Part shown: positions 20,466 to 51,177 of the stretch, piece by piece
Position numbering within the stretch: the stretch's first letter is position 1
Layout: every line of letters begins with the position of its first letter
Program-made: the position numbers and the translations under genes
Source of the DNA: an uncultured Phycisphaerae bacterium
GTDB taxonomy: Bacteria > Planctomycetota > Phycisphaerae > UBA1845 > Fen-1342
Length of the DNA: 64,000 nucleotides
Assembly: GCA_937928595.1 (NCBI GenBank)
Contig: CALGJV010000025.1
Coordinates: 62,001-126,000, forward strand
Direction of reading: 5' to 3'
Notes under the pieces: generated by a model
The model's input: the letters and a program-made list of their open reading frames with translations, nothing else
Told to the model about the DNA's origin: nothing
Database searches by the model: none

Positions 20466-21541
20466 GCGACCTGCGCTTCGACGACCTGCGCTGGCTGCAC
20501 CTGCTCTGGGCGGTGCTCGCGGTCGCCCTGGCCGGCGTGTGGGGGCTCTGGCAGCGGCGCCGCGCGCTGCGCCGCTTCGCCGCGCCCGAGCTGCTGGCCC
20601 GGCTGGCGCCCGGGGCCGGCCCGACGCGCTCGGCCGCGCGCCTCGCCCTGCACGTGTCCGCGCTGCTGCTCCTCACGGCCGCGCTCATCGGCCCGCGCTG
20701 GGGGCAGGAGCTGCGCCCCGTCGTGCGGCGCAACGTGGACGTGCTGGTCCTGCTCGACGTGTCGCGTTCGATGCTCGCGCGCGACCTCGCGCCCAGCCGC
20801 CTCGAGCGCGCCAAACTCGCCATCGCCGAGGATCTGCTCCCGGTCCTCGCGGGCGACCAGATCGGCCTCATGATTTTCGCGGGCGATGCCGTGCTCGCCT
20901 GCCCCCTGACCATCGACTACGGCTCGTTCCGGCTGGCGCTCCAGGACGTCAGCATCCGCAGCGCCGGCCGCGGCGGCACGAACATCGGCGACGCGCTGCG
21001 CAAGGCCGCCGACGTGCTTCGCGGTCCGCCCGACCGCGGCGACGCCCCGCGCCTGAGCAGCCACCGGCTCGTGCTGCTCATCACCGACGGCGAGGACCAC
21101 GCCAGCTTTCCGGTCGAGGCCGCCGCCGCTCTGTGGCAGGACCTGCGTGTCCCCGTCATCGCCGTCGCGCTGGGCGACCCGCAGGGCGCCCGCATCCCCG
21201 TCCCGGGCGAGCGCGGCGAGACCTTCCTCCAGTACGGCGGGCAGGACGTCGTGAGCAAGGCCGATTTCGCCACGCTGCGGGCCGTCGCCGCCGCCTCGCC
21301 CCACGGCGTGTTCGTCCCGGTCGGCACGCAGAACTTCGACCTCGGCGAGATCTACCGCCGCGTCGTCCGCAGCGTCCGCGCCGAGGAGGACGCGACGCAG
21401 CAGCACGCCCGCCAGCCGTCGCGGGCCCATATCTTCATCCTGGCCGCGCTCGCGGTGCTGCTCATCGACGCCCTGCTCCGCGACGGCCCGCGCCGCGTCT
21501 GGTTCCGCGCGGCCGTCGCGGCCCGGGAGAAAGCCGCATGA
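20462..21541 (+). CDS. BatB-type von Willebrand A membrane protein
   Basis: A 359-residue paralogue of the preceding gene. It has two N-terminal helices, a VWA domain with LLDVSRSMLARDL as MIDAS, RGGTNIGDALRKAADV, and LLITDGEDHASFP, and a C-terminal helix (IFILAALAVLLIDALL). GTG start overlapping the batA stop. BatA and BatB are thought to form a membrane complex with the TPR protein BatC. Confidence 0.92.
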   Translation: MSDLRFDDLRWLHLLWAVLAVALAGVWGLWQRRRALRRFAAPELLARLAPGAGPTRSAARLALHVSALLLLTAALIGPRWGQELRPVVRRNVDVLVLLDVSRSMLARDLAPSRLERAKLAIAEDLLPVLAGDQIGLMIFAGDAVLACPLTIDYGSFRLALQDVSIRSAGRGGTNIGDALRKAADVLRGPPDRGDAPRLSSHRLVLLITDGEDHASFPVEAAAALWQDLRVPVIAVALGDPQGARIPVPGERGETFLQYGGQDVVSKADFATLRAVAAASPHGVFVPVGTQNFDLGEIYRRVVRSVRAEEDATQQHARQPSRAHIFILAALAVLLIDALLRDGPRRVWFRAAVAAREKAA

Positions 21542-22524
21542 TCCGCTTCGTCGCCCTGCTCATGCTCCTGGCCGCGCTCGCGGCGCACGGCCGCGAAACC
21601 GAAGACCCCCGTGCCGCTGTGCTCCGCGGCGAGGCCGCGTATGCCGCGGGCAAGTACGACGAGGCACTTGCCGAGTTCGAGCGCGCGGCCGCGGCGCTGC
21701 CCGACCCGCCGCCCGAGCTGCTGCACAACCGGGCGGCGGCCCTGTTCAAGCTCGGCCGGCTCGCCGAAGCCCGCGCCCTGTGGGACCAGATTCGCACGCG
21801 CAAGGACGCCGCCTTCGAGGCCCGCACGACCTACAACCTCGGCAACGTGGACTACGCCGAGGCGCTCGCCCACACCCAGCCGCAGGGCCAGACGCCGCCC
21901 GACCTGGACGCCGCCCGGCAACGCCTCGCCGCCGCGGCCGAACGCTACCGCGCCGCCCTGCGGCTCGACCCGACGCTGACCGACGCCCGCGCGAACCTCG
22001 AGCTGGCCGAGCTTCTGCGGCGTCAGCTCGAGCAGCTCGCCCCGCAGACGCAGCCGGGGCAGTCCAACCCGCGCAGCGACTCGCAACCCGCGACCCGGCC
22101 CCCGTCGCAGCCCGACCGGCCGCAAAGCAGCTCGCAGCCGGCGGATTCGCAGGAGCAGCCGGAGCCGCAGGATTCCTCGCCGTCGCAGGATTCCACACCG
22201 TCGCAGGAGCAGCCCTCCGACGCCGACCAGGCGCAGAAACCCGCCGATCCGCCGTCCGAGCAGCAACCGCCGCCGGAATCCACCGACCGGAAGAACCGCC
22301 CCTCGGACGAAGCGCAACCCGACGCGGCCGAGAGCCGCCCGGCGGAGGCGCAGCCGGCCGAGCCGCCCGCCGCGGAGCCCACGACCCGGCCGGCGGGCGT
22401 GAAGCTCACGCGCGAACAGGCCGAGCGGCTGCTCCAGAAGATTCGCGAGGCGGAAAAGGCCCGGCGCGAGGCGCTCGCCCGACAACGCGACGCCCGCCGC
22501 CCGCCGGTGGACCGGGACTGGTAG
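21538..22524 (+). CDS. BatC-like TPR protein
   Basis: A 328-residue exported protein: signal peptide (FVALLMLLAALAAHG), two or three tetratricopeptide repeats (about 27-165, GEAAYAAGKYDEALAEFERA; LFKLGRLAEARALWDQI; AAAERYRAALRLDPTLTDAR), a Gln/Pro/Ser-rich low-complexity linker (about 175-285), and the conserved basic C-terminal helix (LTREQAERLLQKIREAEKAR) seen in BatC proteins. Last gene of the Bat operon. Confidence 0.91.
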   Translation: MIRFVALLMLLAALAAHGRETEDPRAAVLRGEAAYAAGKYDEALAEFERAAAALPDPPPELLHNRAAALFKLGRLAEARALWDQIRTRKDAAFEARTTYNLGNVDYAEALAHTQPQGQTPPDLDAARQRLAAAAERYRAALRLDPTLTDARANLELAELLRRQLEQLAPQTQPGQSNPRSDSQPATRPPSQPDRPQSSSQPADSQEQPEPQDSSPSQDSTPSQEQPSDADQAQKPADPPSEQQPPPESTDRKNRPSDEAQPDAAESRPAEAQPAEPPAAEPTTRPAGVKLTREQAERLLQKIREAEKARREALARQRDARRPPVDRDW

Positions 22525-22545
22525 CCGGGGCGGGGGCGGGAGGCA

Positions 22546-22664
22546 GGAAGTGAGAAGTGGAAAATGGGAAGTGAGAAGTCGGAGTCGGGAGGTGAGAAAG
22601 GGAAATTCCCAAGCGAGAAGTGGGAATCGGGCGGCGGAGAGTGAGAATCGGGCAGTGGGCGGTG
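22546..22664 (+). repeat. Degenerate heptamer array, 17 units
   Basis: Seventeen consecutive 7-bp units without phase slips: GGAAGTG, AGAAGTG, GAAAATG, GGAAGTG, AGAAGTC, GGAGTCG, GGAGGTG and so on to GGCAGTG, GGCGGTG. Consensus is roughly RGAAGTG. The purine-rich strand is the plus strand. It lies 21 bp after the batC stop. Confidence 0.85.
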
Positions 22665-22676
22665 CGCCCACTGCCC
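22650..22676 (+). terminator. 11-bp perfect hairpin after the bat operon
   Basis: Arms GGGCAGTGGGC and GCCCACTGCCC with loop GGTGC. The left arm consists of the last heptamer units. No T-run follows, so it may stop or protect transcripts rather than act as a classical intrinsic terminator. Confidence 0.5.
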
Positions 22677-23203
22677 CACCGCGCCGCGCCCGAGCCGTAG
22701 CGCCCACGCCCCCGTCGGCCGGGAGCCCGCGCCCGCAGCGATAGCCCCGTCTGTCCCGAGAGGACGCGTGGTACGTCGACCGTCTTCCGCGCCCCCGGGG
22801 TTGCCCCTCCGTTGGCGCCCGGAGTGATCGAGTGCACGGCCGCGGCGACACCCGGATCAGCCGGTTCTCGGCGTCGCGAGGGCACGGCGTGCCCCCGGCG
22901 CCGCGATTGCCGGAACCGGTCACCTTCCGCAGAGGCTGCCAAAAACGCTGAGACGGGTTACCCGGCCCGCACAGCCGGCTCGACGAGTGGCTGCCGGATC
23001 AGTGGAAGACCGCGACGGCCACTTCGCCCTCGTCATCGCCGCTGTGACCCCGAATCGCCCGTGACTCGCGCGGTCTGCTTGGGGTGCGGTGTACTCAACG
23101 CGCACTCCCCGACGGAGCCGCTGCCGCGTCCCGCTCTCGAACAAGTCAATCGCGACGGCGTCCGGCGTTTGCGTCCCGGGCGGGGCCGTGGTCCAATTCG
23201 AGC

Positions 23204-23923
23204 ATGCGTCCCGACGGTCGGCGACCGGACGAGCTCCGCCCGCTCACGCTTCAGCGCGGCTTCACCCGGGCCGCGCCCGGCTCGGTGCTCATCCGCGCCG
23301 GCGGCACGCACGTCCTGTGCACCGCCAGCATTGACGAAACCGTGCCCGCCTGGCGCGAGGCCAGCGGCGCCGGCTGGGTCACCGCCGAGTACGACATGTT
23401 GCCCGGCGCGACGCCGCAACGCCGCCCGCGCGAACGCACGCGCGTCGACGGCCGCACGCAGGAAATCCAGCGCCTCATCGGGCGCTCGCTCCGGGCCGTG
23501 GTCGCTCTGTCGCGGCTCGGGCCGCGCACGATCACGCTCGACTGCGACGTGCTTCAGGCCGACGGCGGCACGCGGACCGCGGCCGTCACCGGTGCGTACG
23601 TCGCGCTGTGCGACGCGCTGGCGGTGGGGCGGCGGCGGGGGCTGTGGAGGGAGGACGTGCTGCGCGCGGGCGTGGCGGCCGTGAGCGTCGGCCGCGTGGA
23701 CGGGACGCTCCGGCTCGACCTGGACTACCGCGAGGACGTGGCGGCCGAAGTCGATTGCAATCTCGTCATGACGACGCGGGGAGAGTGGGTCGAGGTGCAG
23801 GCCACGGCCGAGCGGGCGGCGTATACGGATGCGGACCTGGCGGCGATGCTGGAGCTCGGGCGGCGCGGAATCGAGCGGCTGTTCGAGTTGCAGCGGGCCG
23901 CACTCGCGGAGGGTCTCACATGA
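23204..23923 (+). CDS. rph: Ribonuclease PH
   Basis: A 239-residue phosphorolytic 3'-5' exoribonuclease that trims tRNA 3' ends. N-terminal signature MRPDGRRPDELRPLTL, substrate loop VTAEYDMLPGATPQRRPRER, phosphate-binding CDVLQADGGTRTAAVTGAYV and C-terminal VQATAERAAYTDADLAAML are all present, and the length is normal. The ATG gives the standard start. The stop overlaps the next gene by 4 bp; rph and rdgB in one operon is a common bacterial arrangement. Confidence 0.96.
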   Translation: MRPDGRRPDELRPLTLQRGFTRAAPGSVLIRAGGTHVLCTASIDETVPAWREASGAGWVTAEYDMLPGATPQRRPRERTRVDGRTQEIQRLIGRSLRAVVALSRLGPRTITLDCDVLQADGGTRTAAVTGAYVALCDALAVGRRRGLWREDVLRAGVAAVSVGRVDGTLRLDLDYREDVAAEVDCNLVMTTRGEWVEVQATAERAAYTDADLAAMLELGRRGIERLFELQRAALAEGLT

Positions 23924-24846
23924 ACCGGACGGCACACTCCCGGCGGGGCTGCTGCGGACCGCTCGGCGGGGCGGCCCCCGTGCTGCTGCTCGGCCTGCTG
24001 GCCGGCTGCGAGGCGGCCGGTCCGGCCGGCGGGGCGGCGCTCGGCCCGCGCGGCGACGAGGACGTCTGGGCGATCCGCTGCATCACGCTGCCGGGCGGCG
24101 GGCGGGAAAGACAGGCGGAGCAGTACGCCGCCGCGCTGCGCAAGGTGCGCGGTCTCCGGCCCGAGCTGGTGCAGGTCCTGACCGACGAGGACGGCACGAG
24201 CGTCTTCTACGGCCGCTACGAGCGCTTCGTCGAGGCCAACGGCAACGTGCGGTACCGTCCCGATCCGGCCCGTGACCTGGACCTGATCCGGCGGCAGAAG
24301 CTGGACGCGCCGGGCGCCGACATCTGGCCGTTCATTCTCGCGACGCTGGATGTGCCGCCCACGTTCCGCTCGTCGCACCCGGAGTGGGACCTGACGAACG
24401 TCGACGGCTACTGGGCGCTCCAGGTGGCCGTGTTCTACAACACCGAGACGCTGCGCACGCGTCGGGCGGCGGCCGAGGAATACTGCCGGCTGCTGCGTTC
24501 GCAGGGCGAGTCGGCCTATTTCCACCACGGGACCGTGAACAGCTCGGTCGTGATCGGCCCGTTCCCCGAGACGGCGGTCGCGACGCTGCGCAGCGAGAAC
24601 CCGCTCTCGAACCGGGTGACCGTCACGCAGCGGATCGTGGACCCGGCCATGCTGGAGGCGCAGAAGCGCTTCCCGCACAATCTGCACAACGGCCACATCC
24701 TGTCCGAGGTCCGCCGCGACGCGAAGGGGGCCGTGAAGGAGCGCGTTCCGGCGCCGTCGTTTCCGGTGATGCTGCCCAAGGCGCAGCGGCAGCTTGACGA
24801 GCTGGGAGAAACCGGCGGTGCTCGAAGTTCTGGTCGCAACCGGTAA
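23920..24846 (+). CDS. Lipoprotein with SPOR-like region, unknown function
   Basis: A 308-residue lipoprotein with lipobox LLLGLLAGC (about residues 22-30). The body contains a stretch typical of sporulation-related-like repeats (GYWALQVAVFYNTETLRTRR then AAAEEYCRLLRSQGESAYFH), in which YWALQVA plus a helix resembles a SPOR fold that binds denuded peptidoglycan. It is placed between rph and rdgB with overlaps on both sides, a lineage-specific insertion in that operon. Confidence 0.8.
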   Translation: MNRTAHSRRGCCGPLGGAAPVLLLGLLAGCEAAGPAGGAALGPRGDEDVWAIRCITLPGGGRERQAEQYAAALRKVRGLRPELVQVLTDEDGTSVFYGRYERFVEANGNVRYRPDPARDLDLIRRQKLDAPGADIWPFILATLDVPPTFRSSHPEWDLTNVDGYWALQVAVFYNTETLRTRRAAAEEYCRLLRSQGESAYFHHGTVNSSVVIGPFPETAVATLRSENPLSNRVTVTQRIVDPAMLEAQKRFPHNLHNGHILSEVRRDAKGAVKERVPAPSFPVMLPKAQRQLDELGETGGARSSGRNR

Positions 24847-25435
24847 CCCCGGCAAGCTGCGCGAGATCCGCGAGATCACCGCCGGGCTGCCGCTCCGCTG
24901 GCGCGCGCTGGCCGAGTTCCCGCACGTGCCGGAGGCCGTCGAGGACGGCGACACGTTCGCCGAGAACGCCCGCCGCAAGGCCCGGCACTACTCGCGCGCC
25001 ACCGGGCTGTGGACCCTCGCCGACGATTCGGGCCTCGAGGTCGACGCGCTCGGCGGAGCACCGGGCGTGCACTCGGCCCGCTACGCCGGTCTGCCGCGCG
25101 ACGACCGGGCCAACAACCGCAAGCTGATCGCCGCGCTCGCCGGCGTGCCCGCTGCCCGGCGCACCGCCCGGTTCCGCTGCGCGATCGCGCTGGCCGACGG
25201 CGAACACATCCTGCTCGAGACCGACGGCCGCGTCGAAGGCCGCATCATCGACGAGCCCCGCGGCGCCAACGGCTTCGGCTACGACCCGCACTTCCTCGTC
25301 CCGGAACTCGGCCGCACGATGGCCGAGCTGCCCTCCGCCGAGAAGAACGCCCGCAGCCACCGCGGCGCCGCGCTGCGGGCCATGCTCCGGCAACTGGAGG
25401 CGCTGCTGCGGGCGCGGGGCCTGTGGCCGGCCTGA
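24818..25435 (+). CDS. rdgB: Non-canonical purine NTP pyrophosphatase (RdgB/HAM1)
   Basis: A 205-residue dITP/XTP pyrophosphatase that cleans the nucleotide pool. Signatures: N-terminal VLVATGNPGKLREIREI, catalytic DDSGLEVDALGGAPGVHSAR, and GRIIDEPRGANGFGYDPHF with TMAELPSAEKNARSHRG. A GTG start 7 bp after GGGAGA was preferred to an upstream in-frame codon; the gene overlaps the lipoprotein by 29 bp. Confidence 0.95.
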   Translation: MLEVLVATGNPGKLREIREITAGLPLRWRALAEFPHVPEAVEDGDTFAENARRKARHYSRATGLWTLADDSGLEVDALGGAPGVHSARYAGLPRDDRANNRKLIAALAGVPAARRTARFRCAIALADGEHILLETDGRVEGRIIDEPRGANGFGYDPHFLVPELGRTMAELPSAEKNARSHRGAALRAMLRQLEALLRARGLWPA

Positions 25436-25535
25436 CCCCCCCCGGATCGCACGCCGCCGCCGCGGCACCCCCCGCATTGCGCTGCTGCTGGCCGCGGCCA
25501 CGCTCGCGGCGGGGGTCGCCGTCAACCAGTCGGCC

Positions 25536-27104
25536 GTGCACTGGCGCGAGAATGTCGCGGACAGCGACCTGTTCGCGTACTTCGGCTGGCTCATCACGCA
25601 GGGCGCCCGCCCGTACCTCGACTTCTGGGACAACAAGCCGCCGGGCATCTGGTGGGCGAGCGCGGCCGCGATCCGGCTCTGCGGCCCGGGAGCGCCGGCG
25701 GACGTCGCGCTCGGGACGGTGCTGCTCGGCGGGACGCTGATCGCCGTCGTGGCGGCCGCCCGAGCGGGGCTGCGCCGCGCGCTGGTGCTGCCGGCGGCCG
25801 TGGCGGCGGCCGTGCTGCTCACGGACGTGCGGCTCGAGTGCGGCGCGGTGCGGACGGAGACGCTCGTCGTGCTCTGCGAGTCGGCGGCGGTCGCCGCCTA
25901 CCTCCATTGGCTGCGGCGCGGACGGCCGGGCGCGGCCGTGCTGGCGGGGCTGTTGGCCGGGGCGGCGCCGCTGGGGAAGCAATCGGGCATCGCGGCCGGC
26001 CTGGCGATCGGCATGCATTGGGCGTGGCTGGCGTGGCGTGAGCCGCGGCCCCGGCGTGGAGCGGTGGCGGCGCTGGCGGCGGCGTGCGTCGCGCCGGCGG
26101 CGGCCGCGGGCGTGCTCGCGGCACAGGGAGCGCTCGGCGAAGCGGCGTACGCGGTCGGTGTGTTCAACCGGGCGTATTTCGCGGTGGATGACGCGACGTG
26201 GGTGCATCTGTGGCGCGCGGCGCGAGTGTACCGGCCGGTGCTGGAGCCGCGGGCGGCGGTGTTCGCGCTGGCGGCAGCGGGGTTGCTGGCGGGCGGGCGC
26301 GCGTGGTTGCGGCGCCGCACGGCGGTGGGGCGGTTGCGGGATCCGGCCGCCGGGCCGCAACGTGCCCCGAGCGCAGGGCCCACGGGCGGCGCGGCACCGG
26401 CGCGTGGCGCGCGGGCCGTGGCGGCGCCGCGCCGCGGCATCGGCGTCATCGTCTGGTGGTTCGTGCTCGCGGCGTATCTCGCGCTCGTGCAGGCCGGTCG
26501 GCAGGCACACCATTTCATGCCGGTGGTCGCGCCGCTCACACTGCTGACGGTCTATCCGCTCCATGTCCTCGCGGGACGGCGCGGGCTCGCGCGAACGCTC
26601 ACCGCCCGGCCGGTCGCCGCCGTGGTGCTCGTCGTGTGGCTGTGGGTGCTGGCGACGACCGCGGCGGGTGCGGCCGCGGCGGCCCAGCGTTGCTGGGCCG
26701 GTCGGCGGGCGTGGGCGGCGGCCGGCGCCGCGGCGTCGCCGGGGACCGACCCGACGCTGGCGGCCGCCGTGCGCGCGGCGTGCCCGCCGGACGAGACGCT
26801 CTACGTGTGGGGCTGGGCGCCGGGCGTGTACCGCAACGCGCTGCGTTGGCCGGCGTCGCGCTACGCGACGTTCGAGAAACTGGGCCAGGTGGGGCCGCAC
26901 GCGCGGTTCATCTTCGACGGGGCCCGCGCGGACCTGCGGACGCGGCCGGCGCGCGTGGTCGTGATCTCGACCGGGGACGCGGCGGGTCTGCTCCGGCCGG
27001 ATCCGTTCAACGAGTGGTTCCGCGCGACCTACACGCGGCGGGCGACGGCGGGCGGCATGGAGGTGTGGGTGCGGGGAGTGCCGGAAACGGCGCCTGGCGA
27101 ATAG
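25536..27104 (+). CDS. Polytopic membrane glycosyltransferase (GT39/ArnT-like)
   Basis: A membrane glycosyltransferase of the GT-C class. The first-loop motif VADSDLFAYFGWLITQGARP followed by DFWDNKPPGIWW fits GT39-like enzymes using lipid-linked sugars, and at least eight more hydrophobic helices follow, with a soluble C-terminal part (PDETLYVWGWAPGVYRNALR). The first usable start in frame is GTG, but the frame continues upstream for 20 codons as a helix (IALLLAAATLAAGVAVNQ) without ATG, GTG or TTG, so the real start is unclear. The stop codon lies in the first unit of a heptamer array. Confidence 0.83.
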   Translation: MHWRENVADSDLFAYFGWLITQGARPYLDFWDNKPPGIWWASAAAIRLCGPGAPADVALGTVLLGGTLIAVVAAARAGLRRALVLPAAVAAAVLLTDVRLECGAVRTETLVVLCESAAVAAYLHWLRRGRPGAAVLAGLLAGAAPLGKQSGIAAGLAIGMHWAWLAWREPRPRRGAVAALAAACVAPAAAAGVLAAQGALGEAAYAVGVFNRAYFAVDDATWVHLWRAARVYRPVLEPRAAVFALAAAGLLAGGRAWLRRRTAVGRLRDPAAGPQRAPSAGPTGGAAPARGARAVAAPRRGIGVIVWWFVLAAYLALVQAGRQAHHFMPVVAPLTLLTVYPLHVLAGRRGLARTLTARPVAAVVLVVWLWVLATTAAGAAAAAQRCWAGRRAWAAAGAAASPGTDPTLAAAVRAACPPDETLYVWGWAPGVYRNALRWPASRYATFEKLGQVGPHARFIFDGARADLRTRPARVVVISTGDAAGLLRPDPFNEWFRATYTRRATAGGMEVWVRGVPETAPGE

Positions 27105-27661
27105 CGAGTTGAGAGTGGCGAGTAGCGAATAGCGAGTTGCGGATCGCGCGCCATGCCCGGCGGCCGACACGCCGGATCGATCGACTCGTACAGCGTGGCC
27201 AAGTCGCGCGCGTTCAGTGCCGTAAAGAGGGCGTGGTGAGCATACTCCGGCGTACGGAAGCGGTACTCCCACGGACAGCCGGGTACGGCCGCGCTGGTCC
27301 AAACCAACCGCCATCGGCCGTCGCGCTCCACGAAATAGAACGCGCGGACCTCGAGGTCGTAAGGGTTGTCGACGTTGAACGTCAACACGGTCCGCTGTTC
27401 GAAGATCGCTCGCCAGGCGTCAGCGGGGCCGGGCCAAGACAACATGGCCGGGCAGCGCAGCTCCTGGTCAACCGAGCGCACCGACAGGCCATTGAAGAAC
27501 GCGGCGAACGCGCGCCCCTCCGGGCCGCCGAGCCCGATGCCCGGCCAGAATTCCGGCACTCTGTGCGGGCCTGCCTCAGGCTGTCCCTGTGGGACGCGAT
27601 CTCCCGCCCGAACCCGATCGGGCGCACCGCTCGCGGCTGCCGCGCCGGGGGAATCACGCAT
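27029..27661 (-). CDS. Hypothetical protein between inverted heptamer arrays, possibly truncated
   Basis: Unrecognised. The centre reads like a real globular protein (FNGLSVRSVDQELRCPAML, FEQRTVLTFNVDNPYDLEVR, AFYFVERDGRWRLVWTSAAV, ALFTALNARDLATLYESIDP) and resembles a secreted or lipoprotein C-terminal region. The C-terminus, however, translates the heptamer array (LAIRYSPLSTRYSPGA) and runs antisense into the end of the glycosyltransferase gene, so the native stop may have been lost. The N-terminus also comes close to the second array. A pseudogene or gene fragment is likely. Confidence 0.48.
   Translation of the reverse strand: MRDSPGAAAASGAPDRVRAGDRVPQGQPEAGPHRVPEFWPGIGLGGPEGRAFAAFFNGLSVRSVDQELRCPAMLSWPGPADAWRAIFEQRTVLTFNVDNPYDLEVRAFYFVERDGRWRLVWTSAAVPGCPWEYRFRTPEYAHHALFTALNARDLATLYESIDPACRPPGMARDPQLAIRYSPLSTRYSPGAVSGTPRTHTSMPPAVARRV
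27096..27144 (+). repeat. Degenerate heptamer array, 7 units
   Basis: Units GGCGAAT, AGCGAGT, TGAGAGT, GGCGAGT, AGCGAAT, AGCGAGT, TGCGGAT in unbroken phase, purine-rich on the plus strand. The first unit supplies the stop codon of the glycosyltransferase gene. Confidence 0.8.
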
Positions 27662-27953
27662 CTTGCGGAGCCCGGCCACCGCGCGGGGACGTTCTTCCCT
27701 CTCACGAAGCAGGGCCAACGCGCCGCGCACTTCCCGTATCCGTCTCCCACTTCCCACTTCGCGGACAAGAAGCCTCCGAAGACGGCGCGTGTTCTACGGC
27801 CGACCGGGGCGCCGGCCGCTACATGCCACGCCCGGCGCGGCAGGAGCGCGGGCGCGCTTCTCGCTCCGCGATTCTCGCTTTCCACGTGCCCATTCCCACG
27901 GCGTGCTTCCCGTTTCCTGCTTTGTCGCTCCCGCCCGCGAGCCGCTGCTCCCG
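27105..27953. other. Repeat-bounded region between convergent genes
   Basis: The span lies between the glycosyltransferase (plus) and the ribbon-helix-helix gene (minus). It contains one uncertain minus-strand gene and heptamer arrays in opposite orientation at its two ends (27096-27144; 27727-27761 and 27854-27930). Confidence 0.5.
27727..27930 (-). repeat. Heptamer arrays in inverted orientation (5 and 11 units)
   Basis: First block 27727-27761: GCACTTC, CCGTATC, CGTCTCC, CACTTCC, CACTTCG. Second block 27854-27930: GCGCTTC, TCGCTCC, GCGATTC, TCGCTTT, CCACGTG, CCCATTC, CCACGGC, GTGCTTC, CCGTTTC, CTGCTTT, GTCGCTC. The pyrimidine-rich strand is the plus strand, i.e. the complement of the GAAGTGG-type arrays. 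Confidence 0.75.
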
Positions 27954-28388
27954 TCATTGGCCCTCCGTGCCACGCGCGTGCGCTGCCGCGACGCTCTGGA
28001 GCCCGCGCGCGATCTGCGCCAGCTCCCCCGGCAGGTCCGGCGTCGCGGCCAGCAGCTCGTCCAGCGTCGCCTTCAGGTTGCGCAGCACGTTCCGCCCGCC
28101 GCCGCCGAACGACGCCGCGCCCTCCAGCCGCTGCGCCCAGTGCGTCAGCCCGAGCTGCCGCAGGTCGTCCGTCAGCTTCCGCAGCCACGGGTGCGCCCGC
28201 CAGAACGCGTCGAACGCCGCGTCGTCCGCCGGCGTCGGCTCCGCGCCGCGGCGCTGCCGGACCGCCTGCGCAAGCAGGTACTCGATCTGCGCGTTGACGC
28301 TGCGGAACTCCGCCGCCGCCCAGCGGTTGAGCTCCGCCCACAGCTCGGGCGAAATCCGCAGCAGGATGGCCTTGCGCGTCTCGGCCAT
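27954..28388 (-). CDS. Ribbon-helix-helix (Arc-like) protein paired with SPFH gene
   Basis: A 144-residue protein. The N-terminal 45 residues ([20 protein letters not shown] then [18 protein letters not shown]) match Arc/MetJ-type ribbon-helix-helix DNA-binding domains. The C-terminal part is helical ([20 protein letters not shown]) and unrecognised. It follows the SPFH gene by 105 bp on the same strand; such pairs recur in bacterial genomes, suggesting autoregulation or oligomer-linked control. Confidence 0.82.
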
Positions 28389-28493
28389 GGCGGTCCGTGA
28401 CCTCGGGTTCGGATCCGTCTGAAAACGGCCGCCCGGCGCGCCGCCGCCGGGCGCAGCCGCGCGCCGCCGACGCCCGCCGGAACGACCGGTCGT

Positions 28494-49786: not shown

Positions 49787-49830
49787 CGCAGGTCCTCGCA
49801 GGTCGCCCGGCGGTCGTCCGCGGCCTTGTC

Positions 49831-49878
49831 TTCGTGCCTCCGTGCCTTCGTGGCTTCGTACCTCCGTGCTTATGCCTC
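49831..49878 (-). repeat. Degenerate octamer array, 6 units
   Basis: Units TTCGTGCC, TCCGTGCC, TTCGTGGC, TTCGTACC, TCCGTGCT, TATGCCTC in unbroken 8-bp phase, between leuC and leuD. Translated on the minus strand it gives the HEGTEARR-type string met as an artefact in many predicted proteins. Confidence 0.75.
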
Positions 49879-49914: not shown

Positions 49915-51177
49915 CTACCCCACCGTCCGCGGGTCCGTGATCTCGCCGCGCAGGGCCGACGCCGCGACGGTTGCCGGGCTGGCGAGGTAGATCTCGCCCT
50001 CCTTGCAGCCCATACGGCCCTTGAAGTTCCGATTGCTGGTGGACAGGCACACCTCGCCCGGCGCGAGGATGCCCTGGTGCGCGCCGAGGCACGGCCCGCA
50101 GCCCGGCGGCAGGATCACCGCCCCGGCCTCGGTCAATGCCGCCAGCGTACCGTCCCGGCTGGCGGCCGTGTACACGTCGCGCGACGCCGGGAGCACCAGC
50201 AGCCGGACTTTCGCCGAGACCTTGCGCCCGCGGAGGATGGCCGCGGCCGCATGCAGGTCGCTCAACCGGCCGTTGGTGCAGGTGCCGAGCAACGCCTGGT
50301 GGATGCGTTTCCCTGCGACGCGGCCGACCGGCAGGACGTTGTCGACCGTGTGCGGTGCGGCGACGACCGGCTCGAGCGCGGCCAGGTCGTACGTCAGCTC
50401 GCGGGCGTACGGGGCCTGGGGGTCGGCCCAGACCGCCTCGTAGCGGTCGCGGGGCACGCCGGCCGCGAAAAGGTATTCGGTTGCGACTTCATCCACCGGG
50501 AAGACGGTGATCTTCGCGCCCATCTCCACGCCCATGTTCGCGATCGTGAACCGTTCGGCGATCGTGAGGTGCCGGACGTCGCCATGAAACTCGACCGCGG
50601 CGTAGTCGGCTCCGTCGGCGCCGATGTCGCCGATGATCCGCAGGATGAGGTCCTTGGCGCTGACGGGCGGGCTCAGCCGCCCGCGCAGCGTGATCCGGAT
50701 GGTCGGCGGGACCTTCAGCCAGGTCTCGCCCGTCAACAGCAGCGCCGCCGCCTCCGTCCGGTCGATTCCCGTCGCGAACACGCCGACGGCGCCGTAGGAG
50801 CAGGTGTGCGAGTCGCTGCCGACGATGATCGTTCCCGGCCGGGCGAAGCCCTTCTCGATCACAACCTGGTGGCAGATACCCTCGCCGACATCGAAGAAGT
50901 TCTGCACGCCGTGCTTTTCGACGAACGCCCGGACCTTGGCGTGACCGGTCGCCGTCTTCTCGTCCGACGCGGGGATCACGTGGTCGAGCACGATGATCGG
51001 CAGGTCGCGGCGCACGAGGCCGAACTCGGCGAGGTCCTTGTCAAGCTTGCCGACGATCGCCGCCGTGTTGTCGTGCATCAGCAGGTGGGCCGGTCGGACC
51101 GTGACGATCTGCCCGACGGCGACCTGGGGCTGCCCGGCGGCCCGGGCGAGCACCTTCTGGGCGAAAGTCTGGGACAT
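49915..51177 (-). CDS. leuC: 3-isopropylmalate dehydratase, large subunit
   Basis: A 420-residue aconitase-superfamily enzyme holding a [4Fe-4S] cluster, in leucine synthesis. The cluster cysteines are in LGTCTNGRLSD and PPGCGPCLGAHQG; other marks are SDSHTCSYGAVGVFATGID and STSNRNFKGRMGCKEGEIYL. It belongs to the shorter HACN-like class, matching the small leuD. The ATG before SQTFAQKVLARAAG was chosen. Confidence 0.95.
   Translation of the reverse strand: MSQTFAQKVLARAAGQPQVAVGQIVTVRPAHLLMHDNTAAIVGKLDKDLAEFGLVRRDLPIIVLDHVIPASDEKTATGHAKVRAFVEKHGVQNFFDVGEGICHQVVIEKGFARPGTIIVGSDSHTCSYGAVGVFATGIDRTEAAALLLTGETWLKVPPTIRITLRGRLSPPVSAKDLILRIIGDIGADGADYAAVEFHGDVRHLTIAERFTIANMGVEMGAKITVFPVDEVATEYLFAAGVPRDRYEAVWADPQAPYARELTYDLAALEPVVAAPHTVDNVLPVGRVAGKRIHQALLGTCTNGRLSDLHAAAAILRGRKVSAKVRLLVLPASRDVYTAASRDGTLAALTEAGAVILPPGCGPCLGAHQGILAPGEVCLSTSNRNFKGRMGCKEGEIYLASPATVAASALRGEITDPRTVG

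What the first reader, a model, noticed from the sequence alone, without database searches (positions are those of the whole stretch)
22546..22676. Seventeen-unit degenerate heptamer array ending in a perfect hairpin
Period 7 is unbroken over 119 bp with strong strand bias (purines on plus) and the final units form the arm of an 11-bp hairpin. Related 7-bp arrays recur at 27096, 27727 and 27854. Heptamer short tandem repeats are known in cyanobacteria; their role here is unknown.
Basis: partly seen in the sequence, partly recalled or inferred. Interest (0 to 1): 0.6.

Follow-up and report, generated by a model that had tools for sequence, protein, structure and literature searches.

The report
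Purine-rich heptamer array at gene end
Just after the stop codon of a gene, this bacterium carries about 17 imperfect copies of a 7-letter, purine-rich word; similar 7- and 8-letter arrays lie at gene edges across its genome and in many other bacteria, almost always pointing the same way, which extends a repeat class described in Xanthomonas and Nostoc whose job is still unknown.

Summary
Window 22546-22664 carries 17 in-phase degenerate heptamers: lag-7 identity is 60/112, against 37 in shuffles, none of 1000 reaching it. A perfect 12-bp hairpin (not 11) follows at 22650-22676. Arrays recur genome-wide. In 2.41 Mb (65%) of this genome, intergenic DNA holds 21 period-7 and 25 period-8 segments, against about 2 each after shuffling.

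They are strand-polar gene-edge elements. The purine strand starts at an ORF edge, usually 0-30 nt after the stop codon, and runs into the intergenic space: 22 of 35 sites lie within 30 nt of their own stop, 5.9 expected. Convergent gene pairs are favoured, divergent pairs avoided. The heptamer GNGARTN follows the same rule in at least ten phyla and in viral contigs; neighbouring arrays run purine-then-pyrimidine 114 times and the reverse once. The two arms do not covary, so base-paired hairpins are not what is conserved.

The closest known class is the GGGANTN heptamers of Xanthomonas and Nostoc (Rehm 2015), with the same placement. Differences here: no GGG tracts, added octamer classes, and units that look like independent draws from one degenerate word. 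Most likely these are cis elements of transcript ends; function is unproven. Verdict: new variant of a known kind.

The parts
21538..22524 (+). TPR gene, BatC-like, whose 3' end the array follows (third gene of a BatA/BatB/BatC-like run)
   Evidence: own codon-model gene call; TPR_2 E 1.1e-8; NF047507 BatC E 1.3e-15, below its curated cut-off
22532..22664 (+). the degenerate heptamer array (clear units from 22546; consensus GGAAGTG, i.e. GRGAAGT in another frame); purine strand = coding strand of the upstream gene; starts 8 nt after the stop
   Evidence: lag-7 69/126, z 5.3, 0 of 1000 shuffles; period scan
22650..22676 (+). perfect 12-bp hairpin, loop GTG; its 5' arm is made of the last heptamer units; no U-tract
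   Evidence: sequence; -25.5 kcal/mol; no terminator-like site found
25536..27104 (+). 522-aa gene without a Pfam or NCBIfam match; its stop codon TAG (27102-27104) lies inside a heptamer unit (GAATAGC)
27095..27148 (+). GCGARTN-class heptamer array; purine strand = coding strand of the gene it overlaps
   Evidence: lag-7 34/47, z 6.1
27727..27762 (-). short, weak heptamer array (ACTTCCC on +); purine strand is minus, pointing away from the minus-strand gene at 27954-28388
   Evidence: lag-7 16/29, z 2.8; pattern hit L006
27846..27936 (-). very degenerate heptamer array; purine strand minus, beginning about 18 nt after the stop of the minus-strand gene (27954)
   Evidence: lag-7 z 2.2, lag-14 z 3.4
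27954..28388 (-). 144-aa gene convergent to 25536-27104; weak ribbon-helix-helix match (below Pfam cut-off)
49825..49869 (-). octamer array, class C (GGCACGAA on the minus strand), about 45 nt after the stop of the minus-strand gene 49915-51177
   Evidence: period-8 score 20.9; sequence

Best explanation
The array is one member of a genome-wide set of strand-polar, purine-rich tandem arrays (period 7 or 8) that sit at ORF edges, mostly directly after a stop codon. It belongs to the same kind as the intergenic GGGANTN / GGGGAYT heptamers of Xanthomonas and Nostoc. Shown: periodicity, genome-wide recurrence, position at the stop codon, polarity (purine strand runs from the ORF edge into the intergenic space), preference for convergent and avoidance of divergent gene pairs, breadth across phyla, and lack of covariation between facing arms. 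Inferred: the purine strand is transcribed as the 3' untranslated end of the upstream gene (here the BatC-like gene) and acts in cis at the end of the transcript. It could be an unpaired, purine-rich, R-loop- or tetraplex-prone spacer between the last ribosome and whatever ends transcription, so each array works alone and does not need its partner arm.
For: Intergenic period-7 and period-8 segments 21 and 25, against shuffled means 2.05 and 2.1. 22 of 35 sites within 30 nt of the stop of their own-strand gene, permutation mean 5.9, 0 of 20000. Convergent 17/35 against 13% of intergenic length (P 6e-7); divergent 1/35 against 32% (P 3e-5). (GCGARTN) arrays from other phyla: 64 of 68 that follow a stop are nearer to it than to the gene ahead, median 3 nt. 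Facing pairs purine-then-pyrimidine 114, reverse 1; in this genome 7 and 0, although the two arms there use different words, most of them pairing a 7-mer with an 8-mer. In Vibrio, Saprospiraceae and Mesorhizobium loci the array lies between the stop codon and a terminator-like hairpin. Purine-strand RNA:DNA hybrids are 0.23 kcal/mol per step more stable than the duplex, pyrimidine-strand ones are not (+0.01). In X. citri RNA-seq, transcripts start or stop more often at G4-forming arrays than at controls (PMC4692102).
Against: In this genome hairpins after arrays are not enriched. Elsewhere arrays also sit beside start codons (17 of 85 in bacterial loci, 79 of 166 in viral-contig loci), which a pure 3'-UTR role does not explain. 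The strand rule alone, within fixed intergenic regions, is only modestly significant here (30 sense-after-stop, 25.5 expected, p = 0.02). No expression data exist for this organism. Gene calls are my own. The neutral rival below explains much of the placement.
Confidence: 0.45

Rival explanations
1. Neutral product of replication slippage: 7-8 bp repeats arise by polymerase slippage and survive only where they do no harm, at gene 3' edges. Polarity comes from a strand-specific mutational process such as R-loops in ribosome-free RNA just after the stop codon.
For: Arrays in Mesorhizobium, Vibrio and others are near-perfect repeats (modal unit share 0.86), as fresh slippage gives. Octamer class B here shows adjacent units more alike than random (0.748 vs 0.606). 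Divergent promoter regions are avoided. Rehm 2015 cites a slippage proposal for heptamers.
Against: In this genome GCGARTN units are no more alike within an array than between arrays (0.686 vs 0.674, p 0.20; variable positions 0.396 vs 0.423), and variation is concentrated at positions 5 and 7, which plain decay of a local founder would not give. The same word recurs in many phyla. Polarity of 114 to 1 also covers arrays at start codons.
Confidence: 0.3
2. Facing arrays form a base-paired stem-loop: a bidirectional intrinsic-terminator or REP-like palindrome with heptamer arms.
For: Purine arm then pyrimidine arm is the polarity of a terminator stem. The array in the finding ends in a perfect 12-bp hairpin. 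Several Rhizobiales arrays flank a hairpin.
Against: Arms of one locus do not match at the variable R/Y position more than arms swapped between loci (0.51 vs 0.515), and no register stands out. In this genome most facing arms have different periods, 7 and 8. No U-tract at the window hairpin. Only one Y1 transposase gene in the genome, with no array in my list near it.
Confidence: 0.1
3. One-way barrier by Rho: the sense (purine) RNA is a poor Rho substrate, whereas antisense RNA entering from the neighbouring gene is C-rich with evenly spaced YC steps and is terminated.
For: Enrichment between convergent genes. Rho is present in this genome (676 bits, plus a second Rho-like protein).
Against: The same arrays occur in two cyanobacterial genomes without a real Rho match. 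They also lie between codirectional genes and in phage-like operons.
Confidence: 0.08
4. Strand-specific tetrahelical DNA: four units fold into a G-quadruplex (GGGANTN) or an AGCGA-quadruplex (GCGARTA), which acts as a replication or transcription block.
For: The shorter arm has exactly four units in 51 of 82 viral-contig pairs. Xanthomonas arrays favour four units and form G4 in vitro. Four AGCGA repeats form a solved tetrahelix (PMC5442326).
Against: Octamer classes and most of the window's own array have neither four GGG tracts nor AGCGA. Only 37 of 87 GCGARTN units here have A at position 7 and so can give AGCGA. No four-unit mode in this genome.
Confidence: 0.07

Closest known systems
Heptameric GGGAATC / (GGGANTN)n repeats of Xanthomonas and GGGGA(C/T)T repeats of Nostoc (Rehm et al. 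2015, PMC4692102)
   Same: Period 7, purine/G-rich strand, intergenic, dispersed; next to ORFs within 0-50 bp, downstream on the coding strand and overlapping stop codons; facing pairs; few between divergent genes; extensive length and sequence variation
   Different: Here position 2 is mostly C (GCGARTN) or mixed, so regular GGG tracts are absent; several 7- and 8-base words in one genome; units degenerate and exchangeable between arrays; strong preference for convergent pairs and for stop rather than start codons
TAACTGA heptamer direct repeats of marine Beggiatoaceae (MacGregor 2015, PMC4679880)
   Same: Intergenic tandem heptamers found in scattered phyla
   Different: Different word; there mostly a few bases upstream of start codons, proposed translational role
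Tandem heptanucleotides (STRR) of the cyanobacterium Calothrix (cited in PMC4692102)
   Same: Tandem heptanucleotides
   Different: Cyanobacterial; nothing here indicates that this genome is cyanobacterial (it has Rho); sequence identity with those repeats was not tested
DRT10 / telomerase-type reiterative synthesis of short tandem repeats (PMC12632851)
   Same: Short tandem repeats of fixed period (9 nt for Eco3 DRT10) with tolerated variation of the template
   Different: Product is cDNA, not known to enter the chromosome; no RVT_1 reverse transcriptase found in this genome

Membership tests
Xanthomonas/Nostoc intergenic heptamer class (Rehm 2015) | tandem heptamers of the form GGGANTN / GGGGAYT | tested here: not met
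   Units are GRGAAGT and GCGARTN; G1, G3, A4 (and T6 in GCGARTN) shared, regular GGG tract absent. GCGARTN fits the wider GNGANTN pattern only
Xanthomonas/Nostoc intergenic heptamer class (Rehm 2015) | G-rich strand 0-50 bp downstream of ORFs on the coding strand, including overlap with stop codons | tested here: met
   22 of 35 sites within 30 nt of own stop vs 5.9 expected; stop inside a unit at 27102-27104
Xanthomonas/Nostoc intergenic heptamer class (Rehm 2015) | facing pairs, one on each strand | tested here: met
   own genome 7 purine-then-pyrimidine, 0 reverse; other loci 114 to 1
Xanthomonas/Nostoc intergenic heptamer class (Rehm 2015) | preference for four units | tested here: inconclusive
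   own genome arrays have 3-11 units, mode 5 of 21 arrays; mode 4 in viral-contig pairs
Xanthomonas/Nostoc intergenic heptamer class (Rehm 2015) | G-quadruplex formation in vitro | not testable with these tools
   needs CD/NMR; lack of GGG tracts makes it unlikely for GCGARTN
Intrinsic terminator | GC-rich hairpin followed by a U-tract | tested here: not met
   12-bp hairpin but no T-run; scan finds none; hairpins not enriched after arrays
REP/BIME palindromes | palindromic unit with a RAYT (Y1) transposase and complementary arms | tested here: not met
   one Y1_Tnp gene only, no listed array beside it; arms do not covary
Phase-variable (contingency) SSR | length change alters a promoter or reading frame | not tested
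   no second strain or same-genus genome was returned; the array lies 3' of the gene, which speaks against it
Telomerase/DRT10-like reiterative reverse transcription | a reverse transcriptase with a short repeat template in the genome | tested here: not met
   no RVT_1 at E <= 0.001 in a 97.9% complete genome
Known structured RNA families (Rfam) | covariance-model match over the array or hairpin | tested here: not met
   0 matches up to E = 1 in window 22400-28400

The most novel reading that the evidence does not exclude
The arrays are scars of templated, telomere-like repeat addition at broken 3' DNA ends. Each broken end is extended with a short degenerate purine-rich word and the ends are then rejoined, which would leave purine strands running inward from both flanks, arms that are independent draws from one word, lineage-specific words of 7-8 bases, and survival only up to the ORF edges.
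Probability: 0.05. Interest if true: 0.92.

Novelty: new variant of a known kind. Interest (0 to 1): 0.5.

Why it matters
Rehm et al. left the function of intergenic heptamers open and discussed them in terms of G-quadruplexes. Here the same placement and polarity are shown for words without GGG tracts, for octamers, and in at least ten phyla plus viral contigs, with a near-absolute polarity rule (114 to 1) and no covariation between arms. That shifts attention from G4 and stem-loop models to a strand-specific process at ORF edges, and gives a simple, testable rule for any genome: purine strand out from the ORF edge.

Tried and rejected
Orthologous array in relatives: RNase PH loci of the 14 best-matching relatives (same family) show no period-7 array, but gene order also differs, so age cannot be told. 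Hairpin as a general part of the arrays: rejected for this genome. Stop codons in all three frames as the purpose: only words ending in A (or containing TGA) supply them; the octamers do not. NHEJ as the source of additions: no Ku gene in this genome nor in 7 of 11 other array-bearing genomes. Rfam: nothing. The pattern run backwards as a control is zero in this genome but high in a few others, so a mirror-image heptamer class (ATTAGTG type) exists and GNGARTN is not the only word.

Full report
Observation. The seventeen in-phase heptamers at 22546-22664 are real. Lag-7 identity is 60/112 against a dinucleotide-shuffle mean of 37.1 (z 5.0, none of 1000); lags 6 and 8 are at background and lag 21 is highest. 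Purines make up 77% of the plus strand. The hairpin is GGGCAGTGGGCG-GTG-CGCCCACTGCCC, 22650-22676, 12 bp, without a U-tract. The array can be followed back to about 22532, 8 nt after the stop codon of a BatC-like TPR gene (21538-22524). The array at 27095-27148 is stronger per base (z 6.1) and contains the stop codon of its gene (TAG, 27102-27104). The two arrays at 27727 and 27846 are weak, read on the minus strand, and follow the convergent gene 27954-28388. So all four arrays in this stretch have the purine strand equal to the coding strand of the gene they follow.

Genome. The window is C25:62001-126000 of a 3.69-Mb assembly. I fetched 2.41 Mb of it (assembled) and called genes with a codon model (1882 genes, 86.5% coding). 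Among periods that are not multiples of three, only 7 and 8 and their multiples stand out. In intergenic DNA there are 21 period-7 and 25 period-8 segments, against 2.05 and 2.1 after shuffling (maxima 4 and 5); the other periods shown give 2-10. The pattern (GNGARTN)x4 with up to 2 mismatches has 49 matches and its reversed control none. Words on the purine strand are GCGARTN and GRGAAGT (7), and GAGAGAKC, GAGGGAYT, GGCACGRA and GTGRGCAR (8). In composites read from the stop outward the order GGCACGAA then GAGGGATT recurs.

Placement. Merging arrays per intergenic region and strand gives 35 sites. 30 have a same-strand gene behind the 5' end of the purine strand, 22 of them within 30 nt of its stop (5.9 expected by random placement and strand, none of 20000 permutations). 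17 of 35 lie between convergent genes (13% of intergenic length; P 6e-7) and 1 between divergent genes (32%; P 3e-5). Sense purine content after stops in general is 0.51, so this is not a property of all 3' flanks. Facing arrays are purine-then-pyrimidine 7 times, never the reverse, even though most of those pairs join a heptamer to an octamer.

Other genomes. In 294 genomes of the same phylum, 67 (55 of 210 genera) carry (GNGARTN)x4, each lineage with its own flavour; 23 carry the GRAGGCAC octamer (whose reversed control is also non-zero in several genomes). With self-trained gene calls, 64 of 68 arrays that follow a stop are nearer to it than to the gene ahead, median 3 nt; 17 more sit beside start codons, most of them still with the purine strand pointing away from the nearer gene. 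In contigs classed as viral the same rule holds (140 of 166), with many start-codon cases. Over both sets, neighbouring arrays within 150 nt are purine-then-pyrimidine 114 times and the reverse once. Some loci are near-duplicates, so the counts overstate independence, but the direction is not in doubt.

What the arms do not do. If facing arms were kept as a stem, the R/Y position should covary. It does not: 0.51 in the same locus against 0.515 with partners shuffled, and no register is preferred. Position 7 is more alike within a locus (0.63-0.67 vs about 0.5), but without dependence on register, so this reflects the local flavour of the word. The shorter arm most often has exactly four units in viral contigs (51 of 82), as reported for Xanthomonas. 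Four GGGANTN units can make a G-quadruplex, and four AGCGA tracts make the tetrahelix described in PMC5442326. But neither fits the octamers or the window's own array.

How the units vary. In twelve GCGARTN arrays (87 units) position 7 is almost free (0.20 bits) and position 5 is mostly A or G (0.88 bits), while the others keep 1.2-1.55 bits. Units within one array are no more alike than units dealt between arrays (0.686 vs 0.674, p 0.20; at positions 5 and 7, 0.396 vs 0.423). So in this genome they look like independent draws from one degenerate word rather than recent copies of a local founder. Octamer class B behaves in the opposite way (0.748 vs 0.606), and arrays in other taxa are nearly homogeneous. 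This contrast is the most puzzling result.

Mechanism. Shown: period, breadth, edge position, polarity, absence of arm covariation. Inferred: the array is the transcribed 3' end of the upstream gene and acts in cis, strand-specifically, at the end of the transcript. RNA-seq in X. citri found transcript ends at G4-forming arrays more often than at controls. Against it: hairpins are not enriched after arrays here, and arrays elsewhere also precede start codons. A neutral slippage origin with survival only at harmless edges remains a serious rival. A Rho barrier is weakened by arrays in two cyanobacterial genomes without Rho. A telomere-like origin at broken ends would predict the polarity, the independence of arms and the multiple words, but this genome has no RVT_1 reverse transcriptase and no Ku.

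Known or new. The nearest described class is Rehm et al. 2015 (PMC4692102), which reports the same placement on coding and non-coding strands, stop-codon overlap, facing pairs and scarcity between divergent genes. The GGG tract that defined that class is not met here, so I file this as a variant of that kind, not a member. Any planctomycete reading rests only on gene content and general impression.

Noticed in passing
C8:9821-10043, C11:16486-16700, C9:15655-15723 and window 49825-49869: Octamer arrays (GGCACGAA, GAGGGATT, GAGAGATC, GTGGGCAG classes) are as common as the heptamers in this genome and mostly follow the same gene-edge rule; composites keep a recurrent order from the stop outward.
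   Followed up: partly
G051, G072, G196, G206, G256: The heptamer pattern read backwards (NTRAGNG, ATTAGTG type) is as frequent as or more frequent than the forward one in a few genomes of the phylum, so a mirror class of heptamer arrays exists there.
   Followed up: no
L304-L395 (viral contigs): GCGARTN inverted array pairs are frequent between codirectional genes in contigs classed as viral, often with exactly four units per arm; some contigs hold several pairs (for example L376, L372).
   Followed up: partly
L029:901-1450 (relative G010): A long tandem array of a palindrome-containing unit (GGATGCAAAGCGGAGCTTTGCACTACT) lies upstream of RNase PH in a relative.
   Followed up: no
G000:C26:67274-68368: A second Rho-like protein (448 bits, below the family cut-off) besides the canonical Rho at C12:203889-205127.
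   Followed up: no
window 25536-27104: A 522-aa protein without Pfam or NCBIfam match whose last codons and stop are made by the heptamer array; C11:234368 looks like a second such case.
   Followed up: partly
own genome, GCGARTN units: GCGAATA and GCGAATG occur but GCGAATT does not appear among the strict units, whereas GCGAGTT is common: positions 5 and 7 may not vary independently.
   Followed up: no
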